Of a stretch of DNA of 64,000 bases, positions 18,226 to 44,050 are shown piece by piece (positions within the stretch are counted from its first letter, which is position 1; every line of letters starts with the position of its first letter). A model generated the notes under the pieces. That model did no database searches. It was not told the DNA's origin and worked only from the letters and a program-made list of their open reading frames with translations. The DNA is from Dryococelus australis. Lineage: Eukaryota > Arthropoda > Insecta > Phasmatodea > Phasmatidae. The translations under genes were made by a program, and so were the position numbers. The DNA lies in NCBI GenBank assembly GCA_029891345.1, contig CM057000.1, forward strand, positions 124,667,838-124,731,837, in the 5' to 3' direction.

Positions 18226-18393
18226 TTTAAATTCATGTCTGTTTATTTATCACAATGTTGTACCTTTGCCCTAGACGTTTTAAACACAGTTGTGTAACGT
18301 GCTTACGTTTCTGCGATTTGAATGTTTGCCACAATCCCAGCAAAATACTAAGCCCAGCCGGATAAATTAAAACAAAAAATTAAATAAACCTGA

Positions 18394-20034
18394 TGCGTAC
18401 CTGGATAGCCTACGAGGCACGATGGTTGTGGATTTTGTCCGCTAGATCAAAAGCGGGGTGATTTGGACTAAATAGATGGCGGGAGACGAGGGGTGTTGGT
18501 TAGTGCATATTTACTACTGATTCTTGGGCGCCGTGGATTGTGGTGGGTTTTACACAGCCGTAGAGAGCTTGCCTACGTCGAACTGGCGATTCCACAGGTT
18601 TGCTTCGGTCCAGAAGTGGATGTTATCCCAGCCGAATCCTGTAGCAGTGCCGGTTAACAATCCTTTGACCACGGGATGGCACGAGGGATGAATTCGTAGA
18701 CACGGAGATACAAATAAGATAGTTACCGGAGCAGTCGATACTGACTCGTGCCTGAGTTGGTTGGCATGGTCCTGTTCCACCTGTCGCTCCAGTATAGGTT
18801 GAAGTACAATCAACTGTGGCTGCAGGGATGCTGCATTTCGTTCCCTACGTTTACAGCCATGCCAATTGTCATAAGGCATTGAGTCTCTGTTCACAGTATG
18901 CTAGGTACACCTTGATGCGAAAAAACTAATCATAGTTTACAGTCAGTCCAGTTTTGGCTTGTTGACCAGGCTATGTTAAGTCTCCACTGATACCCCACGC
19001 TATGCAGGCTGATCAGAGACGGGGAGCCGTTTGGGTCATCAATGCCGCCACTCGATGTGCATCCACACAGGAATGGGCAGCAGGTCTCAAGCTACAAGAT
19101 ATCCCAGCACTAACAATGCTGTGGGATAAGGCAATAACTCGAGACTATCGCTTCTCCCTGGGTGAAGGTGTTGCTAGTGGTTGTGGCTCCTCTGTTCCTC
19201 TCTGCTGGCACTGATACAGTGCTGTGGTAGTAGGAAAGCAACAGATGGCCGTCTAATGGGTGTGTAGAAAAAATGACGGACCCCTGAAGGGCGCCCGTTG
19301 TTGAAGTTAATTAGGTTATATCAAGAACCCGGTGCTTGTCAATGGTGTACGTAGCAACCCATGTCTAGTAGGCAAACAGACAGATACTCTAAGAAATAAA
19401 AGTGATAAGGTAGGAAACAAAAGTATGTTTATTGATGGTTCAATAAACATGTGATGTGTGCTACCTCCTACTAGGCAATTGAGTGCTGAAGGTTACTACA
19501 CTGGCCCGGTGTAGGTGACCTGGTTCTAATGGAAAAGCGGGAAAGAAATATCTACACGAGAAAAGATATAATACTTCTAAACTGTTCTAAGAAAGGTGTC
19601 TTAAGGAGATAAAGTGAGTTTAACATGTTAGTGAGCATGTTCACTGGTTGGCGGATCATCGATGGTGAAGTAGCCGCAAGGGGTGTACTTAAAGCTTCGA
19701 AGTTCTCTGGAGATCTCAGTACTGAGCAGTGCTGTGGGATGTCGCGAGAGAAGAACAAAAATGACTCCCGAGCCCGGCAGCATCCCAACTTGTATAGTGG
19801 AAGCTTGTAGGGTGCCGGTGTGGGGGGAAAGCGTGACGTCCTCCTGCCTTGGTTGGCATGAGAAAACTTTGGTCAGTGTTTCTGCTTCGTGCCTCGTCGG
19901 TGGCACTCTGCCTTGCCCGAGGTCTGGGCAGCTTGTAGGCTCTCAGCACGGGGTGGGCACCATGTCTGCCCGGTTGTGTATCCTCCAGGTGAAGAGAATA
20001 CGCTCATAAGTTCCTGTTGCCTGTAAGGTACGCA
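18394..20034 (-). repeat. long LTR 'A' of a gypsy-like retroelement (left LTR)
   Basis: The unit starts TGCGTACCT and ends with its inverse, GGTACGCA (TG...CA form), 1641 bp. Read on the minus strand, it has a TATA-like box at 19791-19798 about 240 bases from the 5' end, then a hairpin (19425-19450) with AATAAA in its 3' arm. Copies B (about 24560-26460) and C (47048-about 48600) share the same order of blocks. Shared landmarks are GGTGTAGGTGACCTGG, the hairpin, and CTTGTAGGCTCTCAGCA near the right edge. A minus-strand frame (18894-18550) contains HPVVKGLLTG and GWDNIHFW, matched by HPVVNGLLTG and GWDNLIFW in copy C. It is probably the 3' LTR of the element that continues to B. Confidence 0.65.
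19425..19450 (-). promoter_or_regulatory. LTR poly(A) hairpin, copy A
   Basis: Arms ATGTTTATTGA and TCAATAAACAT close a 4-base loop. On the minus strand the 3' arm carries AATAAA. The equivalent stem recurs in LTR copies B, C and D, and a similar one occurs in the plus-strand family at 33211 and 38198. Confidence 0.6.
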
Positions 20035-21426: not shown

Positions 21427-23724
21427 ATGGGTTCGTGCTTCCTCCAATACGAGAGGGAAGGCAAAGGAGACCGCTATGCTGTCTGGTGGGGTTGTCTTGC
21501 AGATATCCTGGTCTTGGTAGACCAGAGTTCTGGTGGTAGTTCAGGCCAAGGGCATGGGTTGTGGCAAAATCTCTGCCGCAGTGGCCTCCTGGGTTGCACT
21601 GACCTCGGTGATCATTCTGGGGGAAGGTGGTTGTTGCAGGTGCCATAAGCAAAGGTGCCCAATGCACTATCCACCGTGATAGTGTACCGAGGTATTTTGC
21701 CTCGACCATTAGGTTGATCCCTTCTTGTTCCTGCAGACGAGTGTGACAAGGACGACCTGGGGTAATGGGGAGGGTCCACTTGGGCATCCTGATTATGTAT
21801 GGTTTTGTTTGTCTGGTCATAGGAGCCACTGGCAAGACTTCGTCCAGAGGGCTTCCCAATACCACCTTGTAAAAGACAGGATTCTGATGGGGCATTCTGC
21901 TGCATCTGGCGGATGTTAGTTGGATTTCGGGATCGAGTGTCGAGGGCAGTGTCCGAGCAGACATACCTCTCTGATACTCCAGGAATGGGATGTCCCTGCG
22001 AGAGGGAGGATAGGGATTTCTCTATATAGTGCCATCTGAAGTTCGGGCTCCCGTGGCCTGGGAGGCTCGGTTCTTGAGGCTGAGTGTGGAGGAGGTGAGG
22101 AGTTCCCCTGCTGTTGTCTGGCCCGATGGCATCGGGCTTGTAGGGTTTGACAACGGAATTTATTTAGGGGATTTGGCACAGCTGGGGGGTTCTCACCCGG
22201 AGCCGTAAAAGTTGAACAGGCGCAGGGGGAGGCGTAGCCTTGACCATGTTACCCTCCCAATCGACAACCAAACGCTTGTATTTCCCCAGGACGGTGCGCT
22301 GTTGCCCGCAGTCAATTAAGCAGTGTTGTGACCAACTACGGTTGCCCCAAAATCATCTGTTCCCCAAGGTCGGGGGCAAATAATAAGGGGACCCAGATGG
22401 TGTTAGAGTGGACCCTTATAATTCGGGGTTATTTCACTGAACAATCTAAGGAGGTTGTTTAAAGCCACTGTGAGTGTCTCGTGGCAGTCAGACTGGCTCT
22501 TTGACGTCGCGTAAGCAGGTCACTCCTAATAAAATTGTGGGCGATGGCTGTATACAGCGCAGCTACAGCAATTTTATTATTTAGGAGGACTCGCAAATGG
22601 GGTTTGTAGGAGAAAGAATACTCGGTTTCCAACATCTGGAGCCTACCGTAGCTTTATTCACGTGGGTTGGCCCCTTAATGTGGCGAGCACGGGGTAGCAC
22701 GTCTGTTGCTCCTATATTCATTGTAGACCTACTCTGACCTTGCCGGACGGGGTAACTTCCGTGTGAGTGCCTCCACAGGCAGTCCCAGCAGGGGCGAAGG
22801 GTGGTGGCAAGAGGAGGAGGTGGCAGCGGGCTGCAAACAGCTGGCAGCCTGGAAGGAGGGGCTGGGACAGTGACCTTGGGGGTACATGCCGAGCCATCTA
22901 GCAGAGCTTGCTCTGTTGTTTTTCTCTACCTTCCCCGCCCTCTCAACTAGTTCGTCGACCATTTATGGTCTTTGGGTTAACAGAAGGTTCCGCAGAGAGG
23001 GGAGAAGAGTACGCGTGATGTTGCGTACACAACTCTCTTCGTTTTCGGTAGGATATATTCGTCGGCGCATTTGGGCCTTCCGAAGAATATATATCTCCAC
23101 TTTGTCCTCTAGGCTCTGGGTTCAAGTATGGAAGTCCGCAATGAGGTTTGCGATCACCTCCTCCCCTGTTAATTGGGAAGTGAGGTGACCTTGCAATTGT
23201 CCCCATTCGATTACAAACTCTCAATATCACCACCACCATTCTCGAGCCTTACCAAACAGTTGTCATTGTGCCTTACTGTTTCACTATTTGGTAGGTATTT
23301 GGTGTTCCATCAGTTCCTGCTCCAATTCGTTCAGGAATGTGATAGGGTCCTCATGAGGTCAGCCACTGAATTCCGGCAGATGGAATATGGCAGTGGGAGT
23401 CTGTGTTGCGAGACTAATCATGGCCGGTAAATGAGGTTTAGCTGGCATACCCCACATTGGTATACCTTACCGGGATGAGCGATACTCTCCTCCGACCAGC
23501 CTATACACAAGGTGGAATTCTGCCACACAGATGATGCAGCGGATAGTGTGGGTACATCGCCCTTTGCACTCAGGCCGATTGTAATGGGCTGCTTGTCATT
23601 GTTGGCAAGATGTACAGTGGTATTCGAGCCCGTCTGTCCCCCAGCCTAAACACGCGTAGTGGAATCGACCCTGGCAGTACGCACAATGAAAAACATGTAG
23701 GCCTATGCCTGGGTATGTACTCAT
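21427..23724 (-). pseudogene. gag-protease remnant of a gypsy-like retroelement with a PHD-like finger
   Basis: Read on the minus strand from 23724. First comes an ATG-led frame with a PHD-like finger (23599-23724). Next is a capsid-like stretch (23208 to about 22923) containing WGQL, TGEEVIANLIADF and ENEESCVRN, with two in-frame stops. A proline/serine-rich spacer follows. Last is a possible protease start near 21700-21750 (ITVDSALGTFAYG, a weak D-S/T-G match). The capsid aligns with the plus-strand element at 34470-34787 (EEVLANLATEFYSRM, ESCVR), which establishes the two as one family. Stops and frameshifts make it non-functional. No reverse transcriptase follows. Confidence 0.65.
23599..23724 (-). 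pseudogene. PHD-like zinc finger at the start of the Gag-like protein
   Basis: The frame MSTYPGIGLHVFHC continues as CAYCQGRFHYACLGW and then EYHCTSC before a stop. The pattern C-x2-C, x4, F-H-x2-C-x-x-W, then C-x2-C matches the second half of a PHD (C4HC3) finger, including the hydrophobic residue before His. PHD fingers usually read histone tails. In a retroelement they could guide integration or packaging, but that is inference. The first Cys pair is not obvious upstream. Confidence 0.6.
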
Positions 23725-24249
23725 TGAGCATTGCTTGATTATATAGAGAAGATTTTCTTCAGGCATTGGAGCCTCGGGAGCATCATGCTGGCTTCACTGA
23801 GTCAGACATGATGTGGCTTGCATTTGTTGAGTGCCACAGGGTGTTTACGTAAGGCTCCCTGAAGTCATGTTGCTGAGGTTCTGATTCCATTAGAATACTA
23901 ATTTTTAAGTGGTGTCTTAGGGAGAAATAAACAACTAGTTAAAGGGGCCAGTAGAGGCTCTACAATAACCAGCTTACACCAGGGGGTTACATAGTACGTA
24001 CGTAACAAGTAAATTATACAGGCGAGCTACACGCACCGTATAATGTATATGTATGGGTGGGTGTGAATTAGCCATCCGGCTAATTGCTTACTAAAACACA
24101 TGACATGGAGTATGTATATGTATCGTACACCAAGGTTCTTCAAGTTATGCTCCGATCGCTTCAGTTATACTTTGACTGTGAAGGTTGAGGTTACGGGGTG
24201 CGGCTGGCTTAGTCCTAATGACCTAATCGGAAATTGTTAAAGCCCCATG
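23725..24249. other. probable 5' leader of the A/B retroelement, no coding seen
   Basis: Sequence between the leader repeat and the first ATG of the PHD-type Gag. It is intermediate in GC. I see no protein similarity. Confidence 0.4.
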
Positions 24250-24570
24250 ATGGGTATCACTTGATGCATTGATAACTACCGCTACCTCCCCTTTTCATTG
24301 CTCGTGGATTGAGAGTTAAATCCTCTCTGAGTTAAACTTAGCAACTAGTAAAATGTAAGAGTTAAAAGTGATAGTTGCCAAGCTGGGTCGGGGGTTTCCC
24401 CACGTTGAAAAAAGTTATGTTTTTGATCTCTTTGGTTTAATGACTACTAAGGGAGGGGAGTTAAACCCCAGGGTAAACTTAATTTGAAAGGTTTCTTGAT
24501 AAGAGACTGGTTTTGCTTATCGTTAGGGCCACCAAATATTGTGAAGCCAGCTTCTCTGGGAGCATGGGCG
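24250..24570 (-). repeat. leader repeat shared with 43780-43990
   Basis: Read on the minus strand, CTGGCTTCACAATATTTGG starts the block and TTCAACGTGGGGAAACC ends it. The plus-strand copy at 43785-43945 reads CTGGCTTCGCGATATTTGA and CCCAACGTGGGGAACTCC, with matching sequence between. The block lies between LTR and Gag in both elements, so it is the primer-site/leader region. I could not assign a convincing tRNA primer. Confidence 0.55.
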
Positions 24571-26460
24571 GAAAGGAACTAAACGGGGTCCTTAAGTTTG
24601 CGTGTTGCCAGGCCTTCATAGAGGGTTGGACTGGTCGACTGATGTGTGGGAACGAAGTCGGGGATTATTGAGACAACACTCCGATGTTTAGTTACCTGGT
24701 GCTGGAGGTACATATGTGGATAATCTATCCAGCCATGAACAATACACAACTGCAGGAAACAAGGGTGTCTCCAATACTGGTGCAAAATATTTTATCGTCT
24801 CTGTGAACACCTGAACTGGAGAGTATTTATATTTGTCTGTTTCCATCGATTCATCGTCTGCAACAGGTTGATGCGTGTCTGATAGTTAAGGCTGGATCAC
24901 GGTCGTGTGGCTTTGGTTGCATTTAGGTCGGTTGTGCGTGCGGGTTTGATTTAGGCGAATTTCTACTGGATATAGCAGTCGGGAGTGTACGTAGCGGTGC
25001 TGACAGGAAAATAGCTGGGTTGACGGCAGTCGTCGTAGGTGGTGTCGAACGAAGTATGGCAGCACTATCTCGTTCAGCTCGTCAGCTATCTGTAATCAGC
25101 GTTAGACCAGCCAGCTGTCTGGTAGCAAAGCGCGCAACTCTTTGCTCCTCTCTCCTGGTGCAGTGCCTCACCTTGAATGGCATAGAGTGGTGTAATTACG
25201 GATAACTCGAAATAAGCAACACGGACACGGGTATCCCTAACATAGTTTTGCCTGGCGACAGCCTTAACGCGAGCTCCAGTTCTTCAGAAGATCCCCCATT
25301 GTTGCCCATCATTGTGAGCTGATCAGAAGCATTGGAGCCATGTGGGTTGCCACTATCACTGGGTGTGAGTTTTCCAACCAAGGCCAAGCCGTAGCACCTG
25401 AGCAAATACCCCCACCAGCACCAGCACCCCGGTCCTCCGGTAGGGGTACAACTCAGATGTACCGTCTCTCCCTGATTGAGAAGTGATACTAGTGGTCGTA
25501 GCAGATCTATTCTATTCCTCCAGTACCTGTATACATGGCAGGAATAGAATAGATGGCCATCTAATGGGTGTGTTTTCAACTTGGAGCCATCTAAGGGGGA
25601 GTCTCCAGTTGTAGTTAATTGCGGAAATACAAATACTTTCCCGGCTCCGATCGGCGGTGTTCAATTCGAGGTTCTCCCAGTAATTGGTGACAAATTACCC
25701 TATGAATGAGACTCAAGAGTAAGAGAAACTAAGCCGTGTTTATTAAAGACGTATTAAACACATGAAACGTACTCTCCTGCCAGGCAGACCGGTGTTTGGA
25801 AGTAATCGTATGGAATCCAGGTGTAGGTGACCTGGTCCTAAGCTAAGTGGGGAAGTTACGTGAAAAACTGTTGAAGATTACTTCAATACAAACCTAAACT
25901 CTATATAGGGGTGTAGTAGGAGACAAAGAAAGAATTACGTGTGGAACATATATGTACAGAAAGCATCTGGTAACTATTGGCATAGTCGGAGCGTCCGGTA
26001 GAGGGGCTGCAGAGCTCTAACGGCGACATCAATGGTGGCAGCCTCTGGTGGCTGCGGAAGACTGTTAAGTCGTTGGCGACAGCCTCTAGAAGGGCTGTTG
26101 AAAGGCTCCCTTCTAGAGGCTCGTTTCAGTCTAGACTCCAGCACCCAGGTGCTCGGAAAAGACTGCAGGAACAACTGGCGAGGGCCGCCACGCACGGCCT
26201 TATATAGCGAGGCAGTGCATGTCGCGGCGGCCACGGGGGAGGGCATGTGATGTCCCTCAGGTGCGAGGCCGGAGTGGGGGTAGCACCCTCTGGTCATCTC
26301 TCGCCCTTCGTGTATCCTCGATGGCGCTCGTGCATGGCCCGAGGTGGATGATGGCTTGTAGGCTCTCAGCATGGTGGAGGTTACTCGCCGCTGTCTTTCA
26401 CAACTCCTTGTATCCATGTGTCCGGCCGCCCTCCAGGATCGTGGCAGACCGGTACTTCCA
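24571..26460 (-). repeat. long LTR 'B' of the gypsy-like retroelement (right LTR)
   Basis: It carries the same ordered blocks as copy A. From the right edge these are CTTGTAGGCTCTCAGCA (about 26355), a TATA box on the minus strand (26209-26216, CTATATAAGG), the hairpin with a degenerate poly(A) arm (25736-25761), GTGTAGGTGACCTGGTCC, and the ATGGCCATCTAATGGGTGTGT block (25551-25571). A second TATA-like site lies at about 24827-24836. Its right edge abuts the RNase H tail of a different gypsy element (26485 onward), so it inserted into that element. The left edge is placed near the leader repeat and is approximate. Confidence 0.55.
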
Positions 26461-27102
26461 TGTATGAAATGGAGCGGGTTTAAATCTCACGAGTGTAAAA
26501 GTGTACACCATCTGCATGTGGAATTCGCTCTCCCGGCTTGCATCTAATTTCGTAGTCGCATCATGCCAACACTACCATCCAGCATTGCAATCGTGCTGCT
26601 GCCATGGTTGATACTGCTGTCTTCTCCCCAAAAATAGTAGCGAGAGGTTTGTGGTCAGTTTCCAACATGAACTTGCACCCATAGATGCAATTGTGAAATT
26701 TTTTGACAGCCTGTATAATGGCCACAGCCTCTCTATCCAATTGTGAATAGTTTCACTCTGCCGCAGACAGTGTTTTGGATGCAAACCCGATGGACATTTC
26801 CCTTCCGTCTTTAATTTGCGACAAGGCAGCACCAACGCCTTTTGGGGAAGCATCTCACATCAACACTAAGGGTTTATTAGGATCGTAATGCACTAACAAG
26901 CTGGACTACAAAAGCCAACCCTTGCTGTCCTGAAACAGTCACTGCAAGTCAGAATTCCACTCCCATGGCACATTTTACTTCAGTAACTCCTAGAATGCAC
27001 GCAGCCGGCTAGCTAATGCTGGAAAGAACTTACCATAGTAATTTAGCAGCCCACAATAAACACTGACTTCTTCTTTGTTAGTGGGTTCAGGAGCCTCTTC
27101 AA

Positions 27103-27702
27103 TCACCTGGAGTATAATTTGTTTGATGGCTTGATGCCACTGCCATCAATAACGTGCCCAAGATACGTTACTCGTGGCTGCAAAAACTTGCACTTTGCAA
27201 TATTGACCCGAACCCCATGCTGCACGAACCAAGCCAACACCCCATCAAGTCTTTCCGTCACTAACTCCAACATTGGGCCTGTCACTAGAACATCATTCTG
27301 ATATGTTGTCACTCCCTGAAGACCACTCAACAACTGTTCAATCACCGACTGGAAGAGAGCACGTGCGGAGGATAATCCGAACTGTAATCATTTGAACCGG
27401 AACAGTCCCTTGTGGGTGTTAATCGTTAACAGAGGTTGAGACTCTTTTGCCACTTCTAATTGCTGATATGCTGCTGACAGGTCCACAACTGAGAAAAACT
27501 TATCCCCTGCTAGAGAAGCGAAAATGTCCTCTGGCAGAGGTAATGGATAATATTCCTTTTCAAGTACAGGATTCAAAGTTACTTTGAAATCGGCACATAA
27601 CCTCAAGCCACCGTTTGCCTTCATCACACACATCAGCGGTGTGGCCCAGTCACTTTTGGTCACTGGATAAATTATCCCTTGTGATACCAACATCACCAAC
27701 TC
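27103..27702 (-). pseudogene. reverse transcriptase of the gypsy element
   Basis: Two collinear frames. The first (27699-27388) carries WATPLMCVMKANGGLRLCAD and FFSVVDLSAAYQQLEV, which are RT blocks 1-3 with the first catalytic Asp in VDLSAAY. The second (27345-27103) has YQNDVLVTG where YxDD is expected (one Asp is Asn), then VNIAKCKFLQPRVTYLGHVI, the usual RT end. One in-frame break separates them (about 27385). It is inactive as it stands. Confidence 0.9.
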
Positions 27703-28479
27703 TTAATCCACTCGTGGTTTCAAGGCATATGGGACCATTCTAGCCTTACAAAACTTAGGCACAGCATTGGGTTTTAAGTGTAGTGTTGCAGTGTAACCTG
27801 TGATAGTACTAATCCCTTTGTGGAAAACTTCTGGATGCCTTCGTTTCAGTCTCGCCACCGCTTCTGCTACTTCCTTGGGCCCACTAACCTCTACCTTAAA
27901 TATTGTATGCCAACCCAACTTAAGCTGCTTTAACCAATTGCACCCTATCAACACTGGCATATCCTGACTCAACTGTTTAACCACTAACAGCAGTAAGTTC
28001 AAAGATTGGTTATTATGTGTCACTTTGAGCACTAACTGCCCCAGAACAGGTAAACACTGACCACCATACGTATTCAATTTAACAGAGACTGGTTTACACT
28101 CTAAATGATGCAGCTGTTGTAGATAGACTTGCTCTGGCAACACACTGACTGCTGCTCCTGTATCCACTTCCATTACAATGGGCTGACCCTCAATATCAAC
28201 ATGTAACCGATATCTGCTTGCTTCAGTGTTTATTTTCATATTATACATTGAGTAATAAGGGTTCTCACCCATGTCCATTTCTGCCACTGCCTTCATTCCA
28301 TTATCAGGCTGAGCATTCAATTCAGCCCCTACCTGGTACACTCTCCGTAGCGTAGGGATCGCTCGACCCTTGTTGGCTGGTTCCTTGTTCTTTCCTTTAC
28401 TCATGCCGTGTCTTGCCAAGTGACCCTGGCGCGAACAACTAAAACACATTACGTCTTTGAAGGGGTACACATCTGCCAA
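27703..28479 (-). pseudogene. zinc knuckle and retroviral-type aspartic protease of the gypsy element
   Basis: A 258-residue open frame. Near its start, CFSCSRQGHLARHG is a CCHC knuckle with the final Cys replaced by Gly. The other knuckle, CFCCGQTSHLADVY, just upstream in another frame, ends in Tyr. The protease active site VDTGAAVSV and the flap-side motif PVLIGCNWL are intact in this frame. The C-terminal end, beginning GYTATLHLKPNAVPKF, is the linker into reverse transcriptase. Confidence 0.85.
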
Positions 28480-28587
28480 ATGCGAAGTTTGGCCACAACA
28501 AAAACATTTTGTTTGTTTATCACCACTTCCACTTTGCTTGCCAGACAGGTTAATTTTGGCTACTTTCCCCGTTACTTTGTGTCCATA

Positions 28588-29066
28588 TTACCATGCATTC
28601 TTCTGGAAATTAGTTTGTTCAAGACAAATGGCTAATTTGTAGGATTCTGCAAAGGACAAGTCTTCCGATAACAACCGCTGACGCACTCGCTCGTCTGCTA
28701 TACCCACCATGAGCTTGTCCCACAATGCTTCATTCAAAATTATGCCAAAATTGCATAATGTTGCAATATGTTTGATGGCTACCACAAACTCAGCTATCAT
28801 CTCTGTATTCTTCTGCACTCTGCTGTAAAACACATATTGTTCTGCAACTACGATCATCCGCGGTGTATAATGTTCTACCAACACCTTAATTAACCCTTCA
28901 TACTGCTTTTCGTCTACCAGACCTGGCGACACTAAATCGCTTAGCACTGCTAGCACTTTTGGTCCATATAAGAGTGATTAACACGGAAACTTTATTTTCA
29001 TCTTTAATATGATGCAACATTTTCTTCTTATGGACAAAACTCTCCTACCCTACTGATTGCCGCCAT
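28588..29066 (-). pseudogene. Gag (capsid) of the K02A2.6-like gypsy
   Basis: The frame starts MAAISRVGEF and then shifts. The longest open part, 28956-28588, contains VEHYTPRMIVVAEQYVFYSR and DERVRQRLLSEDLSFAESYK, the typical capsid pattern of this group. The protein would have assembled the particle and packaged element RNA. A frameshift and stops near 28960-29030 break the N-terminus. Confidence 0.8.
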
Positions 29067-29130
29067 ACTAGAAAACAACACATCCAATACACTTCCGCTA
29101 TTTACTTCCACTAAATAGCAATCCCATCCT

Positions 29131-29139
29131 CCACGCCAA
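29131..29139 (-). other. primer binding site of the gypsy element
   Basis: On the minus strand, directly after the LTR end TAACA and one T, comes TGGCGTGGAGGATGGGAT. Its complement fits the 3' end of a tRNA: loop AAT, T-stem CCCAT, acceptor CCTCCAC, discriminator G, CCA. The isoacceptor cannot be named from this alone. The sequence continues to about 29121. Confidence 0.55.
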
Positions 29140-30735
29140 TGTTATGTAAAGTAAAACGCCACCATTACGACCCCATTTATTATGACCACCTCTCTGTTAC
29201 AACCCAATCCTGAGGAACCGTGAAAAGTTTGGGTCGAAAAAGTAAAAAATTTGACAACGGTTTCAGTTATGCTTATGCGCGAATTTGTTTTTGTAGACCT
29301 TTTCTCCAACTGCGGTACTAGTTTCTATTATCCACAGTTTCCAGTCTATGGAAAATTAACCCTTACAGATGTTAGTGGTCGCACATTTCTCAAGCTGCCT
29401 TCATAGACTTTGACATTTGTTGTCCCAAGTAGCACGAAGCAATAAATTACTTAATGTCAGAAGGGGACACTGGTGTATATTGTCCATGGAAGCATTTAAG
29501 GGGGGGGGGGGGGGAGGGTTGTCCTAGTCGCATGCCGCCACCTCTGCCTTACCCTACTTGTCTTTTATTGCTTCCATTACCCCTCCTCTTTTGCTGTAAA
29601 AATAGCGGCACATTACAGACTAGTTTCTTAATCAGTGTATGTGTAACTTCAAATTTAATTCAATGCCCCTTCTTTAATGATTTTTTTTTTTTTTCCAGTT
29701 TATGTGCGCTCATGCCTATGTAAAATGCTAATTTTTTTGGTGGGCATTTGCTTTTTTTTGTGAAGTCAATTTTATGTGTTAAATGAGTAAAGGTAAGTGT
29801 GTGCAAATAAAATGTGTTTTGTTACCATATTTTGGTGAGCACGGCCGTGTGCGTGTATAGGTCATGTCAGAAGTTTTTGATGAAAAATTCAGGATAATTA
29901 ATATTTCAAGTAGACCACACTAAATTTTTATATTCCCGTGGCCGCCAGCTGGCCCCTGCCCGCCAGAATAATCTTGTAGAGACCGATCAACAGCTGCCCA
30001 GCCCCGAGAATCTAGGACCGATCGACAGATGTGAGTCGCCGCGCTGCAGAGGATCTAGGTGGTCGCCCAACTATGTGTGCAAGGCAATGTATTCGCTGCT
30101 AGCCCCAGCACACGAGTGATCCAATGTATCTTCATACATATTATCAATAAATAAACTTCTGTGTTTTGCTTCAAACATAAGGCATCTCCAACAGTGTTTA
30201 GTTATATTTTAATAATACATAGTCTTATCGTTTCACACTCTTTCAATGGCAATGTCATATTGTGTTTTCTTTTTTATGACAAGGGGTGGTCCAATATGCC
30301 TTTCTTGGATATCATATAAATCAGGAAACGTCCAGCTATTAAAATATACATACGTATTTATATTTAATTAGAAAAGTTGTTTTTTATGCGCTAGAGACGA
30401 TAGAAAATGAAGGTCATGCAAAAAATGGCAGGTTTGGGGGCATAGGGATTAGGTAGGGGTGGGTCAAAATCGGCTCAAAATTTTCCAAATTTTTTATTAC
30501 GACCCCCCCCCCCCCCCCCCTCCCTCTATTTCGACCCTATTCTTAAGAACCGTGAGGGGTCATAATAGAGAGATTCTACTGTACTTCTCTTTATTCCTCT
30601 TCTCTATTCACTTACAACATACCATACAACTCTGTTACTGCTGACCGTCATGTTACCACCATGTTACTGCCTGCTGCCGGTGGCGCTCCCCAGTGCAGGC
30701 CTACCAACTCCCACTGCTCGTACCAATCCACTACA
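29140..30735 (-). repeat. 5' LTR of the gypsy element, split by a MITE
   Basis: On the minus strand the LTR runs from TGTAGTGGATTGG at 30735 to an AATAAAGAGAAG poly(A) region at about 30584-30595. It is then interrupted by the element 29149-30581 and resumes as CATAACA ending at 29140. Without the insertion it is about 160 bp, TG...CA, a normal length for this gypsy group. The 3' LTR is not present. Confidence 0.7.
29149..30581. mobile_element. 1.4-kb TA-flanked MITE inserted in the gypsy LTR
   Basis: Left terminus AAGTAAAACGCCACCATTAC. Right terminus, reverse complemented, CAGTAGAATCTCTCTATTAT. Both continue into GACCCC and, further in, AACCGTGA...GGGTCGAAA-type sequence. Both ends abut TA dinucleotides (29147-29148 and 30582-30583), as in mariner/pogo elements. 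It has no transposase. Inside lie a G run at 29502-29513, a C run at about 30503-30520, and a fragment of the TTACC MITE (29822-29915). Confidence 0.7.
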
Positions 30736-31043
30736 GTAAATTGTAATAACAATAATGTATCTTTATTAAGAATTTACACAGCCCTGCTATAATGACATGA
30801 TTCAAAATAACTTTTAAGTGTATAGAAATGCTTGTTAACATTAATGTAATAGGTTAAGTGAGTAATAGCCTGCTCTGCCATGTCTTACGACTCTCTAAAG
30901 TACAGTGCAATACCGATCCATTAATGGGTCTATAAAAATAAACTGGAATTAAAGTAACAGTCGCACATTTTTTCAGTTTTACAGAAAATACATGGCAGTA
31001 TTCATATATCTACGTTATGTGCTATAGAATATGGTGTTCATAT

Positions 31044-32028
31044 AAATTCGTGGATTATTCTAGCTGTTTCCAGTCTTCGAGTCACACCTCTCCCATAAAC
31101 GTTGGCTTCTTGTACGACTTCTTCTCCTAGTTCATTCATTTGAAGGTTTTCAACAGGAAAATCTTCATCTTGTAAATACTTTGCAAGATTATGTAAAACA
31201 AAACATGAGAGAGAACTACAGATAGTATTCTGTAATGCCTTTCTGCCCGGTATTCTGTCCTGTCTTTTATTTTATGTTGAAGAATTTGAAATCTTTGTTT
31301 AATTTGACCAAAGCACCTTTAAATTACACACCATTCCCTTTTATGTAAATTGCTGTAAGAATGTTGTTCTGCTGTATTTGGGTCCCAAAATGGAGTAATT
31401 AGCCAGGGTGCTGCTAATCCACATTTTTGGTCTCCTAATATTAATGCACCTGATGTATTTTCCCGAATCACCCTGAAATGTGCAGAATTCCTCCAAATCC
31501 TTGAATCATGCACTGATCCTGGCCAAGAACAATCTACACTTGTAAATAATTCTTTACTATTGCAAGTAGCTTGCACATTAAAGGTTGCCACACTTTTCCT
31601 GTTTATATATTCATCATGAACATAAGGCTTGTGTATAGGAATGTGTGTACAATCCAATGTTGCTATAGCACATATAAACGTATACAGTACTTATCTTGCC
31701 ATGCAGCCTTTGCATCCTCTAGTTCTTGCCGAGTAATTGGAAATTTAATCCATACATTAGACTTTCCTGTTATTATGATCGTAACAAAGCCTATAGTTTT
31801 GGACTTAGATGTCTGATTAATGCCTATGTCTTCACCAACACCGGACTGGAAGACTGGATCACCAACATAACTAAGGAATACCATCATTTTTTCTTCCCTT
31901 GATAGTGCTTTACCTCTTGTCTCAACATACTCACCGAGAAAATAGTGTGCCAACCATGATATATTTTCAGGGTTAAACATGTACAGTATTTTACCGTTTT
32001 TTTTCTGTAGCACTTCTTCGCACATCAT
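31044..32028 (-). pseudogene. PIF/Harbinger (HARBI1-like) transposase pseudogene
   Basis: Read on the minus strand from 32028. The N-terminal half (to 31663) has LAHYFLGEYVETRGKALSRE and DIGINQTSKSKT, the helix-turn-helix region of HARBI1-like proteins. After a frameshift near 31660 comes the DDE nuclease: LDCTHIPI (first catalytic Asp), WPGSVHDSRIWRNS (second Asp), ILGDQKCGLAAPWLITPF, then CVI followed by TAA where CVIE, with the catalytic Glu, is expected. The C-terminal part continues as RCFGQ...QRFQILQHKIKDRT and, in a shifted frame, CFVLHNLAKYLQDEDFP to a stop at about 31045. Cut-and-paste DNA transposase, dead. No terminal repeats were delimited. 30736-31043 and 32029-32440 are AT-rich flanks, probably the element's ends. 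Confidence 0.85.
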
Positions 32029-32439
32029 ACTTTCGTCTTCCTTAAACCATGCAAATTCATAAATCCTGCCATTATAAACAACTTGTAACTACACCTGTGC
32101 CTGCTCAATACCACACTCAAGAAACAGGGAGTAACTGAGTTTAAGCTTTCCTTATTCATGTCTCTCTGGAGTATAAACTAAGTGGTTGAGCATTTCCCCC
32201 ACTCTTTAGTTTCTTCTCAACTATGAGTTTATACTTCAAACTTTTATTCAAACAAAACATAATTTAAACTCCATAAATCGTGAGCAAAAGTATATGCTCG
32301 GTTTTATGGTTTTATTCATATCACCCTATGTTAAAAAAAACCCACATGCTACCCCACCCCTCCCCATTAAATCATTAATTTGATGCATTACGTCTTTCTA
32401 TATATAATTTCAACAACTTCTACTCATTAGTACAAACAA

Positions 32440-33340
32440 ACAAAAAGCACCTTCAATGGAGTTTGAGATGCTGCCAGAAGCAATGAGACGCCAGAAATTT
32501 TTTCATCTACCCGGCAAAGGACGGATGCTCCATGCCAGATATAATTATTCCCCGGCCGAGCCACCGAAGCCACGCATTGAGATCAACCGGGTACAGCAGC
32601 GCACCGCTAGATGCCACTACTAGTTCGAGAGCCAAGGTGTGGGCATGGATCCAGCACCCGCCAGTGACCTCACTCGGTGAGGATCTACGTCACGCACTTC
32701 GCAGCTACTACCCCCTCTCCATGACAACCCCTATGCCAGGCAAGCAAGGGGCACACAGCCGAGAAGTATAAATAGAGGGCCACACCAAGGCTCTTGACAG
32801 TCTTCAAGTAATTGACGTCTGTCATGTTCCTTCACCGCACCTCACAGTGCCGCAGGAACCATCAACTCCTACCTTGATCTTCATGGCGCACTAGTGGTGC
32901 CGAAGACATATCCGCTCCTCAAGATTTCACCGCACCTTCGGGGGCCCAAGATCCTTCTCTTCACCAGTCTTGCATCACAGCTAACACCGAGACACGTACC
33001 GGTCCCTTCTGGACAATAGCCGTAAATTATAATTATACTAAATTATATTATAAATTATATTATATTAAATAGCTTAAATTCAGAGTTGTTTTGATAGCCA
33101 CCTTACTTCCTACCCTGTTAGTCTAGGAGCAGGAAGCCTTCACGCATGTTTACGTAGGATGTTTTAACTTCCGCATACTCACGTGGATAGGAGGTAGTAC
33201 TTCACTATCACTGCTTATTTCCATTAAAAGAAATAAACAATGTTTTACCAACTTACGAATATCACTCCCGTAGTCATAGTATCTCTCCTCGTAAACATCA
33301 GGCCCATATGAGGGACAACAGGTGACTGGGATTTTATTCT
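32440..33340 (+). repeat. LTR 'G' (5') of the plus-strand PHD-gypsy element
   Basis: A strong TATA box (GTATAAATAGAGG, 32768-32780) is preceded by about 300 bases of GC-rich U3-like sequence. A hairpin carrying AATAAA lies at 33212-33239, about 440 bases downstream. The block 33000-33335 recurs at 37990-38320 on the same strand: CCCTTCTGG, GTTTTGATAG, AATAAACAA, then CCTCGTA or CCTAGCGTA. These are the two LTRs of one element. The outer left edge is uncertain. Confidence 0.55.
33212..33239 (+). promoter_or_regulatory. LTR poly(A) hairpin, copy G
   Basis: TGCTTATTTC pairs with GAAATAAACA (one mismatch) around an 8-base loop. AATAAA lies in the 3' arm. The copy at 38198-38228 has perfect 11-base arms. 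Confidence 0.55.
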
Positions 33341-33874
33341 CTCCATTCAGACACGTAAAACAATAGTACAATCTTGGAAGGCCACCCATTCACTGCACCC
33401 AGTGTAGTGAATGGTAGAGCCACGGCAGTAGGTACATGTTTCTCTTAGGGTCAGCTTGTCAACTTTGAGATTGCACTTCTCATAGCGCACTAGCGGTGCT
33501 GAGAGGGGTATTTCTCCGGGTCTGGAAAGAACTCTAGCATGACCTCACCCCCATATGGGGATGGTCCCCAGTGCTACGCAGCTCACCTAAACTCGCACCT
33601 CTGGTACTTGAATTGGAGGGTAAGAGATGGCATTGGCTCGCTGCCACCATATGCACATTATTACACACTTCCATGCCAACTGCTCCACTTCTACAAAGTA
33701 AGATCGTAGGATTCTCTTTTCCTCATGCCCTTTTACTGTAGTTGTGGTATTCATAATAGAACAACCAGGCAAGCATGACCCAGAGACAGGCTAACTAGCC
33801 GGAGAACCAAGCAGCCATAAGAACAGACTTCGGGGAGTCTGGAAAGACTCTGTGGCGTTCAACAACACGCAATA
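33341..33874 (+). other. leader between LTR and Gag of the plus-strand element
   Basis: No protein similarity is seen. Position and polarity make it the 5' untranslated leader. It holds an imperfect inverted repeat around 33387-33412 (TTCACTGCACC...AGTGTAGTGAA). Confidence 0.4.
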
Positions 33875-34398
33875 ATGTCAGATACAGATACTGATGTAAG
33901 CGAGCAAGCCAAAATCACAATGACTACAACCAGCGCAGAACATTGCACGAAAGCCCACTGCCCTGGCAAAAGGATACATCCCATTGAATGCGCTCACTGC
34001 ATGCGCAGTTTCATTAATTCTGTCCTACATATGGATTAGAATTCCGTTGCGAAGAATGCCGAACCTGACAAATGACACATTGCAGCTGGGCATCTTGCCC
34101 ACAACGTGGGACCCATACCATCCGTTGTATTATATGTGCAGATTCTTTCCCCCACAGTTGCATTGACTGGCCCGAAGAACAGGTAACCCAACCTGGCATG
34201 GTTTACAGGTGTGAGGTATGTCAGAGCACCACCAAATACTGTCCATGGAACCCGGAACATGCCACTTGTACTGTATATACAATAGAGGACCCCCAAATTC
34301 CTGACTTTGTGGGCCAACTCCACGAGGACCCCACACTTTTCTCGCCGCGTGCGAGAAACAATTTCGTGCACAAGAAATCCCTCCTAAGCAAAGGGTAA
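33875..34398 (+). pseudogene. tandem PHD-like fingers of the plus-strand gypsy-like Gag
   Basis: The ATG at 33875 opens MSDTDTDVSEQAKI, then HCTKAHCPGK and IECAHCMRSF. After a frameshift (about 34030), EFRCEEC completes the first C4HC3-like finger. A second finger follows in the 34072-34398 frame: THCSWASCPQRG, IRCIICADSFPHSCIDW, then VYRCEVCQ. Both have the spacing C-x4-C, C-x2-C, (H)-x2-C-x-x-W and C-x2-C. The minus-strand relative at 23599-23724 has the same finger at the head of its Gag. The role is unknown; chromatin reading is a guess. A stop at 34037 breaks the frame. Confidence 0.65.
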
Positions 34399-34469
34399 GC
34401 CAAACCCTGAGCAAGTTATAAGGCAAGGCACTGGATTGGTGAAACTGGTACGGCAAATTAACAACTGAC

Positions 34470-34787
34470 TGGACTCAGTTGTATAACCCACCTGCCACCG
34501 AATTCACTGAAGAGGTGTTAGCGAACCTCGCCACAGAGTTCTACAGCAGAATGCAAAACTCTGGCAAAGAAGCTGAGCTGTTTATACAACGAAAAGTTTA
34601 GATGATCCGTCAAATTTTCCAGGAGGAAAATTAAGAAAGCTGTGTGCGACACGTGACGCTGATGCTAATACCCAAGCTCCAAAACTTTCTACAATGCCCA
34701 AAACCCCGGTCGTTTGAAGAAATGATAGCACTGGCCACAGAACTGGAATGTAATTTCCGCAAACAGGATGAGATGGACCATAGATAA
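34470..34787 (+). pseudogene. capsid-like segment of the plus-strand gypsy-like element
   Basis: The frame contains WTQLYNPPATEFTEEVLANL, then ATEFYSRMQN, ESCVRHVTLMLIPKLQNFL and EEMIALATELECNFRK, with two in-frame stops. It aligns segment by segment with 23208-22923 on the minus strand, which shows that both derive from one protein family. The helical composition and position after the zinc fingers fit a Gag capsid. Confidence 0.6.
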
Positions 34788-35108
34788 AGGGGCAGGGGGA
34801 AGGAAGAAGCGAGAATAATGAGCCGCGTGCCCTCCCCCACCTTCCCCGCAGAGTCATTCATAAACAACCCCTGCCACACTTCTGCGTTACGCTGGCCGCA
34901 AGGGAGCGGGGAGAAGGGAAGAAGGCAAGGTCAAGCCTGTCCCCTCCCAGTAGTACCACGCTGCTGCCGAAATGCTAGTTTTGTCCAGAGACATTTCCAC
35001 CGCAACTGTACTGTAAAATCGGCCAGCTGGAAGAGGAAACGAGAAGACAACCCACCACCCCAGCAGGATAAGGATGAAAGGAAAGGTAAACCCGAAGTCA
35101 AATTACAA

Positions 35109-35470
35109 TGTTAATTGAGGGACCCTACTCCCCACAACCTCCCCGGCTAAAAGTGAGAATCAACCGGCAAGCGACAGCAGCCATGATTGACACAGTAGAC
35201 ACAGGGAATTTTATTCTGAGCGACCTGCTCACGCTCCAACAAAGAGCCCACCTGATGCCCCCTGAAGGCTGAGTACAGATGGCACAGCCCGATCGCCTAT
35301 TTTTGGTCACAGGCAGAATAAGAATACCCATACAAATCGACCAGATGACCACCCACATGGAGTTTTTAGTAGCACCCGAAATGAGGAAAGATGTTATTTC
35401 AGCTCCAAAAATAAAATTGTGGTGGACTGCACGCAACACCAGCTGCACATCAGAGGGAGAGAAAAGCGCC
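35109..35470 (+). pseudogene. retroviral-type aspartic protease remnant
   Basis: VRINRQATAAMIDTVDTGNF has the family's catalytic Asp-Thr-Gly in a hydrophobic context (the local MIDTVDTG looks partly duplicated). It is followed by FLVTGRIRIPIQI and HMEFLVAPEMRKDVI. It would cleave the element's polyprotein. Stop codons interrupt it. No reverse transcriptase follows downstream. Confidence 0.55.
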
Positions 35471-36870
35471 TAGTGATCCCCTGGGAATCAAGCAGTGAAG
35501 TGACCTTTCAGCCTCCAACCCCACCACGTGGACCGGGAGGACTAAAATGACTGCAACAGTTGGAAGTAGTAATGGACCAACCGACCCCAAGCCCACCAAA
35601 GAAGACGAGAAACCAGGTCCAAAAGCAGAACAATGTCGCCTGCGGCTTCCACTTCAAGAAGCCCTAGACCGGAATAAGAATGCTACCGCCTCAACCACTT
35701 CAGAAGCTCCGGACAACGTGGATGAACCCACAACAATGGCTGCCCAACAAGTGCAGCCACTCTCACCCAAGGGACCTGAGGTGAGGTCCAACACCAGCCA
35801 AGGGGCAAGCTACTCCGTTCCAACATGGACAGGAGTGCTACAGCAAAAGGCAGGGTCAATGATCCACACGCTGCCAACCACACCCACCGATTTTAAATTC
35901 AAAATGGAAGCCCGGCAAGGAAGATGGTCGCAGAGCACCAGCGAGATATCCTGGCGTAGTCCCTTGGATCGGGAAACATGCCTGGTATGGCCACCTCCAA
36001 GCCTGATATACTAGAGGGAAGAAAGGCCAAAGGTCAACACACAGACTGCACCCCACAGGCCTATCCCTCCAGCAACAAGCCACGCCACACCGCCTCCAAC
36101 GAGCCATAACGCGGAAATGGGCCCAATGCCAAATGACATTACGAACACCTCCGAAATGCAGCCATCCTCAAGAGAGGGCCATACCAGAAATATCAGTCAA
36201 GACCGCGTCCTGCTGAAGGCCTTACTCAAACTGGTACCTTCGGCAAAGATGTAGACAGCGCAAGAACCCCACTGGCCACAGAGACATATAGCACTGAGAC
36301 TGCTGGCGACACATATGCCAGTGTTGCTTGATGCCACAGCCAAATTCACTAAGCAGCGCTTCGAACGAGAAGATGGACTGCCTTCAACCGGAGGGGCAGC
36401 AGAAGATAACCTGCTGCAGAGCCTACCCCAGACGGTAGTCAAAGTCCCGGTGTCGCATACTTCTAAGGCCGACACCCAGGCCAACATCCCGAATGAGAGG
36501 ATGTCAACCACCATGACAAAGAGAGAGGGGGGCATCTGTCCAGCCCCCAAAACCAACGCAGCCAGCCAATGAGGCAGTACCACCATTAGAACCACTGCCT
36601 TTGACAGCTACCCCGATGGCAACATTTCCGGACAATGAGGCAGCTGATCACCCCAGGCGCCTGCTGGTCTGCTCCAGACCAAGGCAGAGGGTGAACCCAC
36701 GACGTGGGCCCTGCCAAACTGGAGAGTGCAGCCACTACGAGACTGCCAGGACAGCTCAATGCCGGGCCAGTACCAGGAGGTTATCTGGAGGCCAACCATC
36801 AGATTCACCTGGCCTTACCTCCAGCCGCTGCCCGAGACAACGGGAGAGGCCACCGAAGACGACATAACGA
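35471..36870 (+). other. Pro/Thr/Ser-rich coding-like tail of the plus-strand element
   Basis: Open stretches 35547-36014 and 36315-36572 encode low-complexity, proline- and threonine-rich protein (TTSEAPDNVDEPTTMAAQQ). No polymerase domain is visible where one would be expected. This is either a spacer/U3 region or the scar of an internal deletion. A TATA-like site (ACATATATAATG) follows at about 36892. Confidence 0.4.
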
Positions 36871-37989
36871 GTGAGTGATGTGCCATGCACGGACATATAT
36901 AATGACAGCCGTTATTAAGCTGTCGCTCAGTGAGAATGTACCAGTAACAAGTACATAAATTCAGTCAAGAGTTACGTACTCTCAGATAAAGTGCAATCAA
37001 CTAGTACTGTCCAAGAAAACAGCTTAATTATGTAACAGATATCAGTGGGGGATAATGGCCACGTGCCATTCACATTCAGTCAGTGCTAACTAATGTAAAC
37101 ATTTTGGGACACTCCTTCATGCCCAGGCAACCCAAAAGTGCTAAGAAGAAATACAATGTGCGTCAATATAAGCTAACGAAAATTCTTGTAGAAAGAAAAG
37201 AGACAGAAAAAGTAAAATTTTTTTACAATGTTGAAAGAAAATTTAAAGACTTTAATATCTCAACTTAATTGCCTTATGTAGAGGCTCTTTAGAAACCAGT
37301 AAATTTTCTTAGTTATATATAAATGCAAATTTTAAAGTTTAAATGCATTGTTGCAAAAAATTGTCTTAAAACTTTAAAAATCACTTTGCTGTATACGCAT
37401 TTTAAAGAAAGTTGGAAATTTCTATTAGCACATGCATTTTTTATGAGCAATCAAAGTTTCTTTTGTGAATTACAAAAAAGTCAAGAAACTCACAAACAAA
37501 AGATAATTTAACAAGCCATTAAGAAAAGTTGTGAAGTAATTTCATTCTGAATATGTAAAATTATTCCAAGTGCTTTGTTGTACGTCAACTGTTTGTGAGG
37601 TATTTTCTTCTTAATATGTAACATTATTCCAAGTGCTTTGTTGTACATCCACTGTTTGTTTGTTCAACATGCAATCTTTTTTGAGTGTCTCAAATGAAAC
37701 GGACAGTTTAACAAGCCCAGCAAGAAAAGTTGTGACACAGAATTTGCATCAATATGTAAAATTATTCTAAGTGCATTATGTGTTTGAAGTGCCTTCTATG
37801 CCTCTTTATCTATTTTGTGTACGATGGTGAAGTACATCTTTAAACCTCTTTTTGACAACACTCTCGCATTCCCAAACCTAGCTGTTCAGACAAGATGACG
37901 GAAGGTATCTACTAACAAACCCCGTAACTATATTTTCATGTAAAGGCAGTGGTCGAGTTTTATTATTTTCGCATCAGGCAGCTACAGCC
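36871..37989. other. AT-rich sequence before the 3' LTR block
   Basis: A TATA-like box lies at 36893-36900. A direct repeat of about 60 bases follows: TTATTCCAAGTGCTTTGTTG occurs at about 37562 and 37625, and the related TTATTCTAAGTGC at about 37763. No genes were seen. It may be an insertion within the 3' LTR. Confidence 0.4.
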
Positions 37990-38330
37990 GATTAGCTAAG
38001 AAAACACGTCGTCTACACAGACACACTGCGGCCCCTTCTGGGCAACACATGCGTAAAGAGTGGTACCAGTTTAAGTTATTTTGATAGACTTGTCTACCCC
38101 ACCATTGTTAGCTCAGAACCTAGTCACCTTCACCTGGATAACGTAGGTTTAAACTTCCCTAAGCTCTTGCCAACGTTAGGAGGTAAAGCGACACCACTTG
38201 TTTATTTCCCATCAAATGAAATAAACAACAGTTTTTCTGACTCAAGTGTATCCTTCTCTGTAGATGTAGTACCTCTCCTAGCGTACCTCACACCAAGCAA
38301 GGGATTGTAGGTGACCCCAGAAAATTTAAT
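37990..38330 (+). repeat. second copy of the LTR 'G' block (3')
   Basis: It matches 33000-33335 in order and strand, including the AATAAA hairpin at 38198-38228 (arms TTGTTTATTTC and GAAATAAACAA, loop 9). Its right end abuts a TIR element at 38345. Confidence 0.55.
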
Positions 38331-41760: not shown

Positions 41761-42285
41761 TGAACAGACACCAATTGTTTTATTTTTCCGTGAGATCGGC
41801 ATAATTTTTAAAGAAACACATATTTTGTGTACAGTGGTTTTGAGTACTAGTAATTTCTATTGGGTTGGTAGTTAACGTCCATTAAACGCGATATTTTTCT
41901 CCTGCAAACCCATTCCCTTGTTTTCCTGTTGTTACTATATTGTATTAATGAAACAAAAAAAAAAAGTGACACATAAGTAGTTTTTAAGTAATTCTTACGT
42001 TTTTCCAAGCCCCACATTTCCAACTAAAACTGTTTAGTATCAGTAAAAGTATAATTACTGCTTTTGATTAGTCGTCAGTGAGTTTGGAAAATAAAAGCCC
42101 ATTGTCAAGGAAGTTCCCCGTATTACTTTTAGTTCCAGTTATATTAGCTGTAAGGTCCAAAGTGTGATAAGAACTACAATTACCATCTCACAAACATTAA
42201 CCTAAACTCACTGTCTCGGACAAATTAAAAGAGACTTAGTAAATATTTAATTATCTTGCAAGGGTTTATATTTTTACTTTTATAA
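41761..42285. other. AT-rich intronic sequence, nothing seen
   Basis: No coding or repeat signature was recognised apart from an A run at 41955-41965. Confidence 0.5.
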
Positions 42286-43330: not shown

Positions 43331-44050
43331 CGCCAGTGGAAACAGCCCCAGATACTAGGGACACTCCTCAACCTGCACAAGCCTTAGTACCTCTATTGGT
43401 CCAATAATATGAACCCCTAACGATCAAACTGCTGTTGAGGCCATACAACAGGGAGGGGAGATTCTCCTGGGGCTTGATTGGCTGTGGCACAGATTAGAGT
43501 AACCAGAGCCTCAGTGCACAGACAACTCTCCAGATATGAACCCCCATCACTCCCAGCTTTCTCGAGCCCACAGCTACATCACAGCCAACATGTAGAGTGA
43601 GCACGGCAGCTGGGAAGAATATCCACCTTCGACTACAAAACCAAGTTCCAAAACGTCAAAAGGTTATCTCTGTAATCCCGGATTTTGCACCCTTTCGCCA
43701 ACCCACCCAGCCAACTATCTATAAAGACAGGGCTTCTCAGGAATTTAAGATACCTACCTGAAATCCATTAATGCTCCCCATGAAACTGGCTTCGCGATAT
43801 TTGACGTCCCCAAAAGTGAACCAAACCAAGGTTTCCTACCAGGAAACTTACCAGGTCACGTTTACTTTGGGGTTCAAGTCCCCCACATCTTTGGTCATCA
43901 CTAGAATGAAGAAATCCAAATAGTAAGCAATCCCAACGTGGGGAACTCCTGACCTAGTCTGGCATCATCCTTGCATTTCAGTACATATATGTTCCACTAA
44001 GAACACGTATTGTGGACCAGAGACCAAAAATACCCCGACGGGGTGGACAC
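43331..44050 (+). repeat. LTR end 'E2' plus leader of a PHD-gypsy relative
   Basis: The frame near 43440 reads GGEILLGLDWLWHRLE, loosely like the GWDN block of LTRs A and C. A TATA-like CTATCTATAAAGACAGG lies at 43711-43727. At 43785-43945 the leader block shared with 24250-24570 follows (CTGGCTTCGCGATATTTGA). The element is cut off before any Gag, and the zinc-finger exon lies 280 bases further on. Confidence 0.45.

What the first reader, a model, noticed from the sequence alone, without database searches (positions are those of the whole stretch)
23599..34398. PHD-like zinc fingers at the head of a gypsy-like Gag in two independent copies
The minus-strand copy (23599-23724) and the plus-strand copy (33875-34398, two fingers) share C-x2-C...C-x2-C fingers with an F-H-x2-C-x-x-W core. 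They also share a homologous capsid further downstream (EEVIANL/EEVLANL, ESCVR), and the plus copy then has a protease. PHD fingers are known in some CR1-like LINEs; in a gypsy-type Gag I do not know them as standard. Reading chromatin during integration is a possible role, inferred only.
Basis: partly seen in the sequence, partly recalled or inferred. Interest (0 to 1): 0.75.

Follow-up and report, generated by a model that had tools for sequence, protein, structure and literature searches.

The report
Double PHD-like fingers on retrotransposon Gag
Two decayed copies of an old virus-like jumping gene both carry, at the front of their shell protein, a pair of zinc fingers resembling those that cells use to read histones, which hints that the shell itself may once have gripped chromatin.

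Summary
Both copies (plus 33875-35523, minus 23809-22218) carry TWO tandem C4HC3 fingers, then a Ty3/gypsy-type capsid, a weak knuckle-like motif and a probable retropepsin. Order is the same and spacing close, and one DNA alignment (56%, E 2.8e-19) runs from before the ATG through both fingers and the linker into the capsid, so the fingers belong to the Gag gene. The capsid matches Retrotrans_gag and Arc. Read across their frame breaks, 4 of 4 fingers match Pfam PHD, below its cut-off; 18 of 19 PDB matches are PHD fingers. Ligand-keeping shuffles match Pfam PHD in 1 of 8 rows but reach similar PDB E-values: PHD-like is well supported, PHD not proven. Both copies are fossils beside related LTR-like repeats. 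No RT or integrase was found in either; a third fragment may link the family to a gypsy integrase. Ten PMC searches, seven with a PHD term, listed no PHD in an LTR-element Gag; Repbase and the host genome were out of reach. Best mechanism (inferred): a Gag-borne histone tether. New variant of a known kind.

The parts
33084..33326 (+). P5: 5' LTR-like repeat of the plus copy
   Evidence: 65% to 38074-38315, same strand, 5 kb apart
33875..33937 (+). ATG and N-terminal stretch of the plus Gag
   Evidence: M-S-D opening shared with the minus copy; DNA similarity starts before the ATG, at 33822
33938..34065 (+). finger 1, plus copy, broken by a frame shift near 34010
   Evidence: profile hits 33938-34033 and 33970-34065 in two frames; Pfam PHD E 1.1 when read across the break
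34075..34227 (+). finger 2, plus copy, unbroken
   Evidence: Pfam PHD E 0.054
34422..34784 (+). capsid, plus copy, 3 stops in 121 codons
   Evidence: Arc C-lobe E 6e-5; A2 profile to PDB Arc 2e-6; stops
34962..35009 (+). weak knuckle-like C/H motif
   Evidence: by eye; no Pfam match for the ORF
35123..35523 (+). probable retropepsin, plus copy
   Evidence: motif and position; aligned to the minus copy; no Pfam or PDB match
35524..36880 (+). GC- and A-rich, Pro/Thr-rich stretch after the protease, nature unknown
   Evidence: composition; no Pfam match to an RT or integrase in the 7 of 16 ORFs of 45 aa or more scanned
38074..38315 (+). P3: 3' LTR-like repeat of the plus copy
24376..26374 (-). 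R: LTR-like repeat and leader just upstream of the minus Gag
   Evidence: 60% to L in the aligned part, 63% to T; 24733-24376 is 64% to 43609-43964
23439..23595 (-). finger 2, minus copy, broken by a frame shift
   Evidence: Pfam PHD E 0.017 when read across the break
23599..23736 (-). finger 1, minus copy, unbroken
   Evidence: Pfam PHD E 0.06
22897..23379 (-). capsid, minus copy, 8 stops in the 157 codons 23379-22908
   Evidence: Retrotrans_gag E 2.5e-4
22752..22790 (-). weak knuckle-like C/H motif
   Evidence: by eye; no Pfam match for the ORF
22218..22653 (-). probable retropepsin, minus copy, active-site motif decayed
18353..19951 (-). L: LTR-like repeat, possible 3' LTR of the minus copy
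   Evidence: 60% to R but 63% over 1.67 kb to T
43609..43964 (+). X: relative of R's leader
   Evidence: 64%, E 1e-29
46233..47043 (+). G3: fragment with a possible protease end of this family, then an integrase zinc-binding domain
   Evidence: Integrase_H2C2 1.1e-9; protease-end resemblance E 6e-4, 0.065 and 0.007, 0.34 with the whole protease profile

Best explanation
A family of Ty3/gypsy-type LTR retrotransposons whose Gag begins with two tandem PHD-like zinc fingers, followed by an Arc-like capsid, a knuckle-like motif and a protease. SHOWN: fingers, linker and capsid form one conserved unit in two separate decayed copies, each beside LTR-like repeats of one family. INFERRED: in the live element Gag assembled through its capsid with the finger pair as an N-terminal appendage. 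After maturation the fingers stayed with the capsid or pre-integration complex and bound a histone tail, holding the complex on chromatin and biasing where it integrated. A reader domain would thus do in Gag what nucleosome-binding peptides of MLV p12 and foamy virus Gag do. The confidence given is for the architecture; I put the chromatin tether at about 0.4.
For: One DNA alignment from before the ATG through fingers and linker into the capsid, 930 columns, 56%, E 2.8e-19. Same order and close spacing: finger 2 to capsid 380 and 369 nt, within the capsid 186 and 189, capsid to protease 476 and 402 (places). Capsid: Retrotrans_gag 2.5e-4 (minus copy), Arc C-lobe 6e-5 (plus copy), five PDB Arc sequences 2e-6 to 5e-5. 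Fingers: Pfam PHD in 4 of 4 when read across breaks, 1 of 8 ligand-keeping shuffles; 18 of 19 PDB matches are PHD fingers of nine proteins. Mismatches prefer third codon positions in fingers plus linker (p 0.035) and capsid (p 3e-4); zinc-ligand columns identical in 11 of 13 against 28 of 70 others, p 0.005. LTR-like repeats beside both copies share a segment. Tether by Gag products is known for MLV p12 and foamy virus Gag (PMC6021111, abstract and passages).
Against: All PHD scores lie below Pfam's cut-off. As plain ORF pieces only 2 of 4 finger pieces matched PHD (E 0.51 and 0.14), and a zinc ribbon (0.008) scored better for one; for minus finger 1 C1 and a zinc ribbon score slightly better than PHD. 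Ligand-keeping shuffles reach PDB E-values of 0.005 and 0.032 against 0.009. The structure model was uninformative. The protease has no profile match and no third-position excess. No RT or integrase found in either copy. Only two copies, no intact relative, host unknown. Nothing here tests histone binding.
Confidence: 0.85

Rival explanations
1. The fingers belong to an unrelated element, such as a CR1 or L2 LINE ORF1, that lies beside the Gag.
For: PHD fingers are common in CR1 and L2 ORF1 (PMC4120745, passages).
Against: Two copies keep the same order and close spacing, and one DNA alignment crosses finger, linker and capsid.
Confidence: 0.03
2. The fingers are PHD-like in sequence but act as RNA-binding or Gag assembly modules, with no histone binding.
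For: Gag zinc fingers usually bind RNA (recalled). The classical knuckle here is weak. PHD scores are low and C1 or zinc-ribbon models score as well for one finger.
Against: Ligand order is C4HC3, Pfam and PDB matches favour PHD, and a separate knuckle-like motif follows the capsid.
Confidence: 0.35
3. These are non-autonomous Gag-protease elements that used the RT and integrase of another element, rather than broken autonomous ones.
For: No RT or integrase was found after the protease in either copy.
Against: Two decayed copies cannot tell loss from absence; only 3 of 21 (minus) and 7 of 16 (plus) downstream ORFs of 45 aa or more went through Pfam; G3 may be a relative with an integrase.
Confidence: 0.35
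4. A host gene that captured a capsid (an Arc-like domesticated gene with PHD fingers), duplicated and decayed.
For: The capsid profile's nearest solved structures are Arc, a domesticated Gag.
Against: LTR-like repeats of one family lie beside both copies and a protease region follows the capsid.
Confidence: 0.05

Closest known systems
Ty3/gypsy (Metaviridae) LTR retrotransposons; capsid nearest Arc
   Same: Retrotrans_gag and Arc-like capsid, probable protease after it, LTR-like repeats
   Different: Two PHD-like fingers ahead of the capsid; no RT or integrase found in these copies
CR1 and L2 LINE ORF1 with PHD (PMC4120745, passages)
   Same: PHD-type finger near the start of the retroelement's RNA-packaging protein, in several subgroups
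   Different: LINE ORF1 has RRM, coiled coil or CCHC, no retroviral capsid or protease, no LTRs
Gag chromatin tethers: MLV p12 and foamy virus Gag (PMC6021111, abstract and passages)
   Same: Proposed function: a Gag part holds the capsid-containing complex on chromatin
   Different: They are short nucleosome-binding peptides, not zinc-finger reader domains; likeness of function is inferred
Ginger1 transposons with a PHD finger (PMC2836005, passages)
   Same: A PHD finger carried by a mobile element related to gypsy through its integrase
   Different: PHD is at the C-terminal part of a transposase of a DNA transposon, not in a particle protein

Membership tests
PHD finger | zinc ligands in the order C4-H-C3 | tested here: met
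   29 of 32 ligand places hold Cys or His as expected over the four fingers, two of them read across a frame break
PHD finger | score above the curated Pfam cut-off | tested here: not met
   9.7 to 15.6 bits, cut-off 24
PHD finger | nearest to PHD rather than other zinc folds | tested here: met
   PHD best Pfam family in 3 of 4 fingers; 18 of 19 PDB matches; shuffles 1 of 8 in Pfam, and 6 of 11 and 0 of 13 PHD by name in PDB
PHD finger | three-dimensional fold | tested here: inconclusive
   mean pLDDT 66.7 with two sequences; no match below E 2.5; HPV E7 first, BAZ2B PHD ranks 8 and 15 of 18
PHD finger | histone binding | not testable with these tools
   needs protein
CCHC zinc knuckle (rival for the fingers) | C-x2-C-x4-H-x4-C | tested here: not met
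   fingers are eight-ligand; no CCHC family among Pfam matches
Ty3/gypsy LTR retrotransposon | gypsy-type Gag capsid | tested here: met
   (Pfam scores slightly under the curated cut-offs)
Ty3/gypsy LTR retrotransposon | flanking LTRs in direct orientation | tested here: met
   P5 and P3 for the plus copy; R and L for the minus copy are doubtful partners; no exact ends or target-site duplications determined
Ty3/gypsy LTR retrotransposon | retropepsin | tested here: inconclusive
   motif and place fit; no Pfam or PDB match, hhalign not significant
Ty3/gypsy LTR retrotransposon | RT, RNase H and integrase in the same element | tested here: inconclusive
   none found in the ORFs scanned; G3 integrase link is weak
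CR1/L2 LINE with PHD ORF1 | RT after a capsid-less ORF1 | tested here: not met
   a capsid is present; no RT among the downstream ORFs scanned. Endonuclease was not looked for by name

The most novel reading that the evidence does not exclude
A lineage of LTR retrotransposons placed a tandem histone reader in Gag itself, so that the capsid rather than the integrase read chromatin marks and steered the particle to its integration sites; part of the lineage lived as Gag-protease elements without their own pol.
Probability: 0.3. Interest if true: 0.78.

Novelty: new variant of a known kind. Interest (0 to 1): 0.55.

Why it matters
Known reader domains of LTR elements sit in the integrase (chromodomains, recalled); known Gag tethers are short peptides (PMC6021111). 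A reader domain in Gag would be a third solution and would make it testable whether capsids choose chromatin. It would also extend the PHD shuffling known in LINEs (PMC4120745) to elements that form capsids.

Tried and rejected
Homologues: three protein searches scored nothing at the limits set (E 1, 1 and 0.001); viral contigs gave 9 pattern matches and no relative; phage records gave 5 places, all with E of 5 or more. I suspect these collections hold few such elements; I did not test that. The window's own genome (genome search) answered 'busy' all 12 times, so copy number, host and intact relatives are unknown. In the window no further finger scored better than E 0.11 with the four-finger profile, no further capsid better than 1.2, and no further protease better than 0.34, the last at G3. 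A single-finger query gave one 0.037 hit antisense to the integrase, taken as chance. NCBIfam: no match for the four fingers. Rfam at gathering scores and ARAGORN: nothing. The neighbour gypsy (26561-28977, minus) was considered as the pol of the minus copy and rejected: it has its own knuckles, protease, RT and RNase H (knuckles and part of the RT by eye) and lies on the other side of repeat R. The first 40 residues of G3 could also be RNase H by eye; I lean weakly to the protease end.

Literature: ten searches of open PMC papers. Seven held a PHD term (17, 21, 60, 61, 68, 87, 90), and only part of the finds was listed (25 of 37, 12 of 23, 12 of 31). By title and abstract start none concerned a PHD finger in an LTR-element Gag. 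I saw listings only, except passages of PMC3286476 (its PHD hit is a host gene near an insertion), PMC4120745, PMC2836005 and PMC6021111. Repbase and subscription papers were not searchable.
Full report
What is there. Translation of both stretches shows, on opposite strands, the same series: two cysteine-rich fingers, a capsid, a weak knuckle-like motif and a probable protease. The plus copy has an ATG at 33875 and the minus copy one at 23809; both open with M-S-D, though similarity begins before the ATG and the frame may start earlier.

Are fingers and Gag one unit? Yes. A single DNA alignment covers 33822-34705 and 23871-22967 (930 columns, 56%, E 2.8e-19). From the tblastn places the distances are 380 nt (plus) and 369 nt (minus) from finger 2 to capsid piece 1, 186 and 189 to capsid piece 2, and 476 and 402 to the protease piece. 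Mismatches prefer third codon positions in fingers plus linker (0.34, 0.38, 0.52; p 0.035) and in the capsid (0.30, 0.32, 0.63; p 3e-4); the short protease alignment shows no such pattern. An amino-acid-guided count agrees for fingers and capsid but is biased towards it, and is not significant for the protease. Zinc-ligand columns are identical in 11 of 13 cases against 28 of 70 other columns (p 0.005); three ligand columns at frame breaks were left out.

Which finger? The ligand order is C4-H-C3, as in PHD. Read across the breaks, all four fingers match Pfam PHD (E 1.1, 0.054, 0.06, 0.017; 9.7-15.6 bits, cut-off 24), and PHD is the best family for three of four; for minus finger 1 a C1 domain and a zinc ribbon score slightly better. 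As plain ORF pieces only two of the four matched PHD (0.51, 0.14), and a zinc ribbon did better on one. The four-finger profile matches 19 PDB sequences at E up to 1, best 0.009: 18 are PHD fingers (KAT6A, KAT6B, AIRE, PHF8, PHF2, PHF10, PYGO2, SET3, RCO1) and one is an antibody. As a control I shuffled the gap-free non-ligand columns twice. One shuffle matched 11 PDB sequences, 6 of them PHD by name, best E 0.032; the other matched 13, all Mdm2, best E 0.005. Of the 8 shuffled rows one matched Pfam PHD. So the PDB E-values alone are what a cysteine skeleton gives; the consistent PHD assignment is what stands out. A structure model was too poor to help.

Which Gag? The minus capsid read matches Retrotrans_gag (2.5e-4) and the plus read the Arc C-lobe (6e-5), both under the curated cut-offs. 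The two-copy profile matches five Arc sequences in the PDB (2e-6 to 5e-5) and one unrelated ribosomal protein at 0.86. The protease is inferred from position and motif; neither Pfam nor PDB matched it, and hhalign set its motif on the DTG of the neighbouring gypsy protease without significance.

What surrounds it. P5 (33084-33326) and P3 (38074-38315) flank the plus copy in direct orientation. R, directly upstream of the minus copy, resembles L downstream of it (60%), but L is nearer to T at 47.0-48.6 kb (63% over 1.67 kb), so R and L may not be partners. R, L and T share a segment with P3, which ties both copies to one LTR family. No RT or integrase was found after the protease; of the downstream ORFs of 45 aa or more, 3 of 21 (minus) and 7 of 16 (plus) went through Pfam, and the neighbour's RT pieces found no relative in the window. 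A fragment at 46233-47043 has an integrase zinc domain (1.1e-9). Its first 40 residues resemble the protease ends of both copies (6e-4 and 0.065; profile 0.007), and X, a relative of R's leader, lies about 2.3 kb upstream on the same strand. I take this as a hint, not proof, that the family had a gypsy integrase. T lies inside this fragment.

Age. The capsid reads hold 3 stops in 121 codons (plus) and 8 in 157 (minus); aligned bases of the LTR-like repeats are 66-77% identical. These are old fossils, so any function concerns the live ancestor.

How it may work. Shown: paired C4HC3 fingers fused to a capsid, with signs of selection on both before decay. Inferred: the pair held the capsid-containing complex on chromatin. 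MLV p12 and foamy virus Gag tether in that way with peptides (PMC6021111, abstract and passages). For PHD in LINE ORF1, general targeting of the genome during integration was suggested, with no functional studies known to the authors in 2014 (PMC4120745, passages). RNA binding or assembly is nearly as likely.

Novelty. PHD is known in CR1 and L2 ORF1 and in a Ginger1 transposase. Ten searches of open PMC papers, seven with a PHD term, listed no case in an LTR-element Gag; Repbase was not available. I file it as a new variant of a known kind.

Noticed in passing
26561-28977 (-): A second gypsy-type element without PHD fingers: two CCHC knuckles (by eye), protease (8.5e-7), weak RT (0.038), RNase H (5e-13). 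It ends near where repeat R begins.
   Followed up: partly
46233-49000 (+): Integrase fragment split by the LTR-like repeat T; about 100 residues of the core seem to be missing at the junction (by eye).
   Followed up: partly
18353-19941 and 47012-48578: Two long LTR-like repeats, 63% over 1.67 kb, same strand.
   Followed up: partly
31319-31690 (-): PIF/Harbinger-like transposase fragment, DDE_Tnp_4 2.5e-17.
   Followed up: no
48387-48455: 35-bp tandem duplication with a TATATA box inside repeat T.
   Followed up: no
42263-42866 and 14351-13784: Inverted repeat pair, 80%, about 600 bp, with an internal palindrome at 42719-42814.
   Followed up: no
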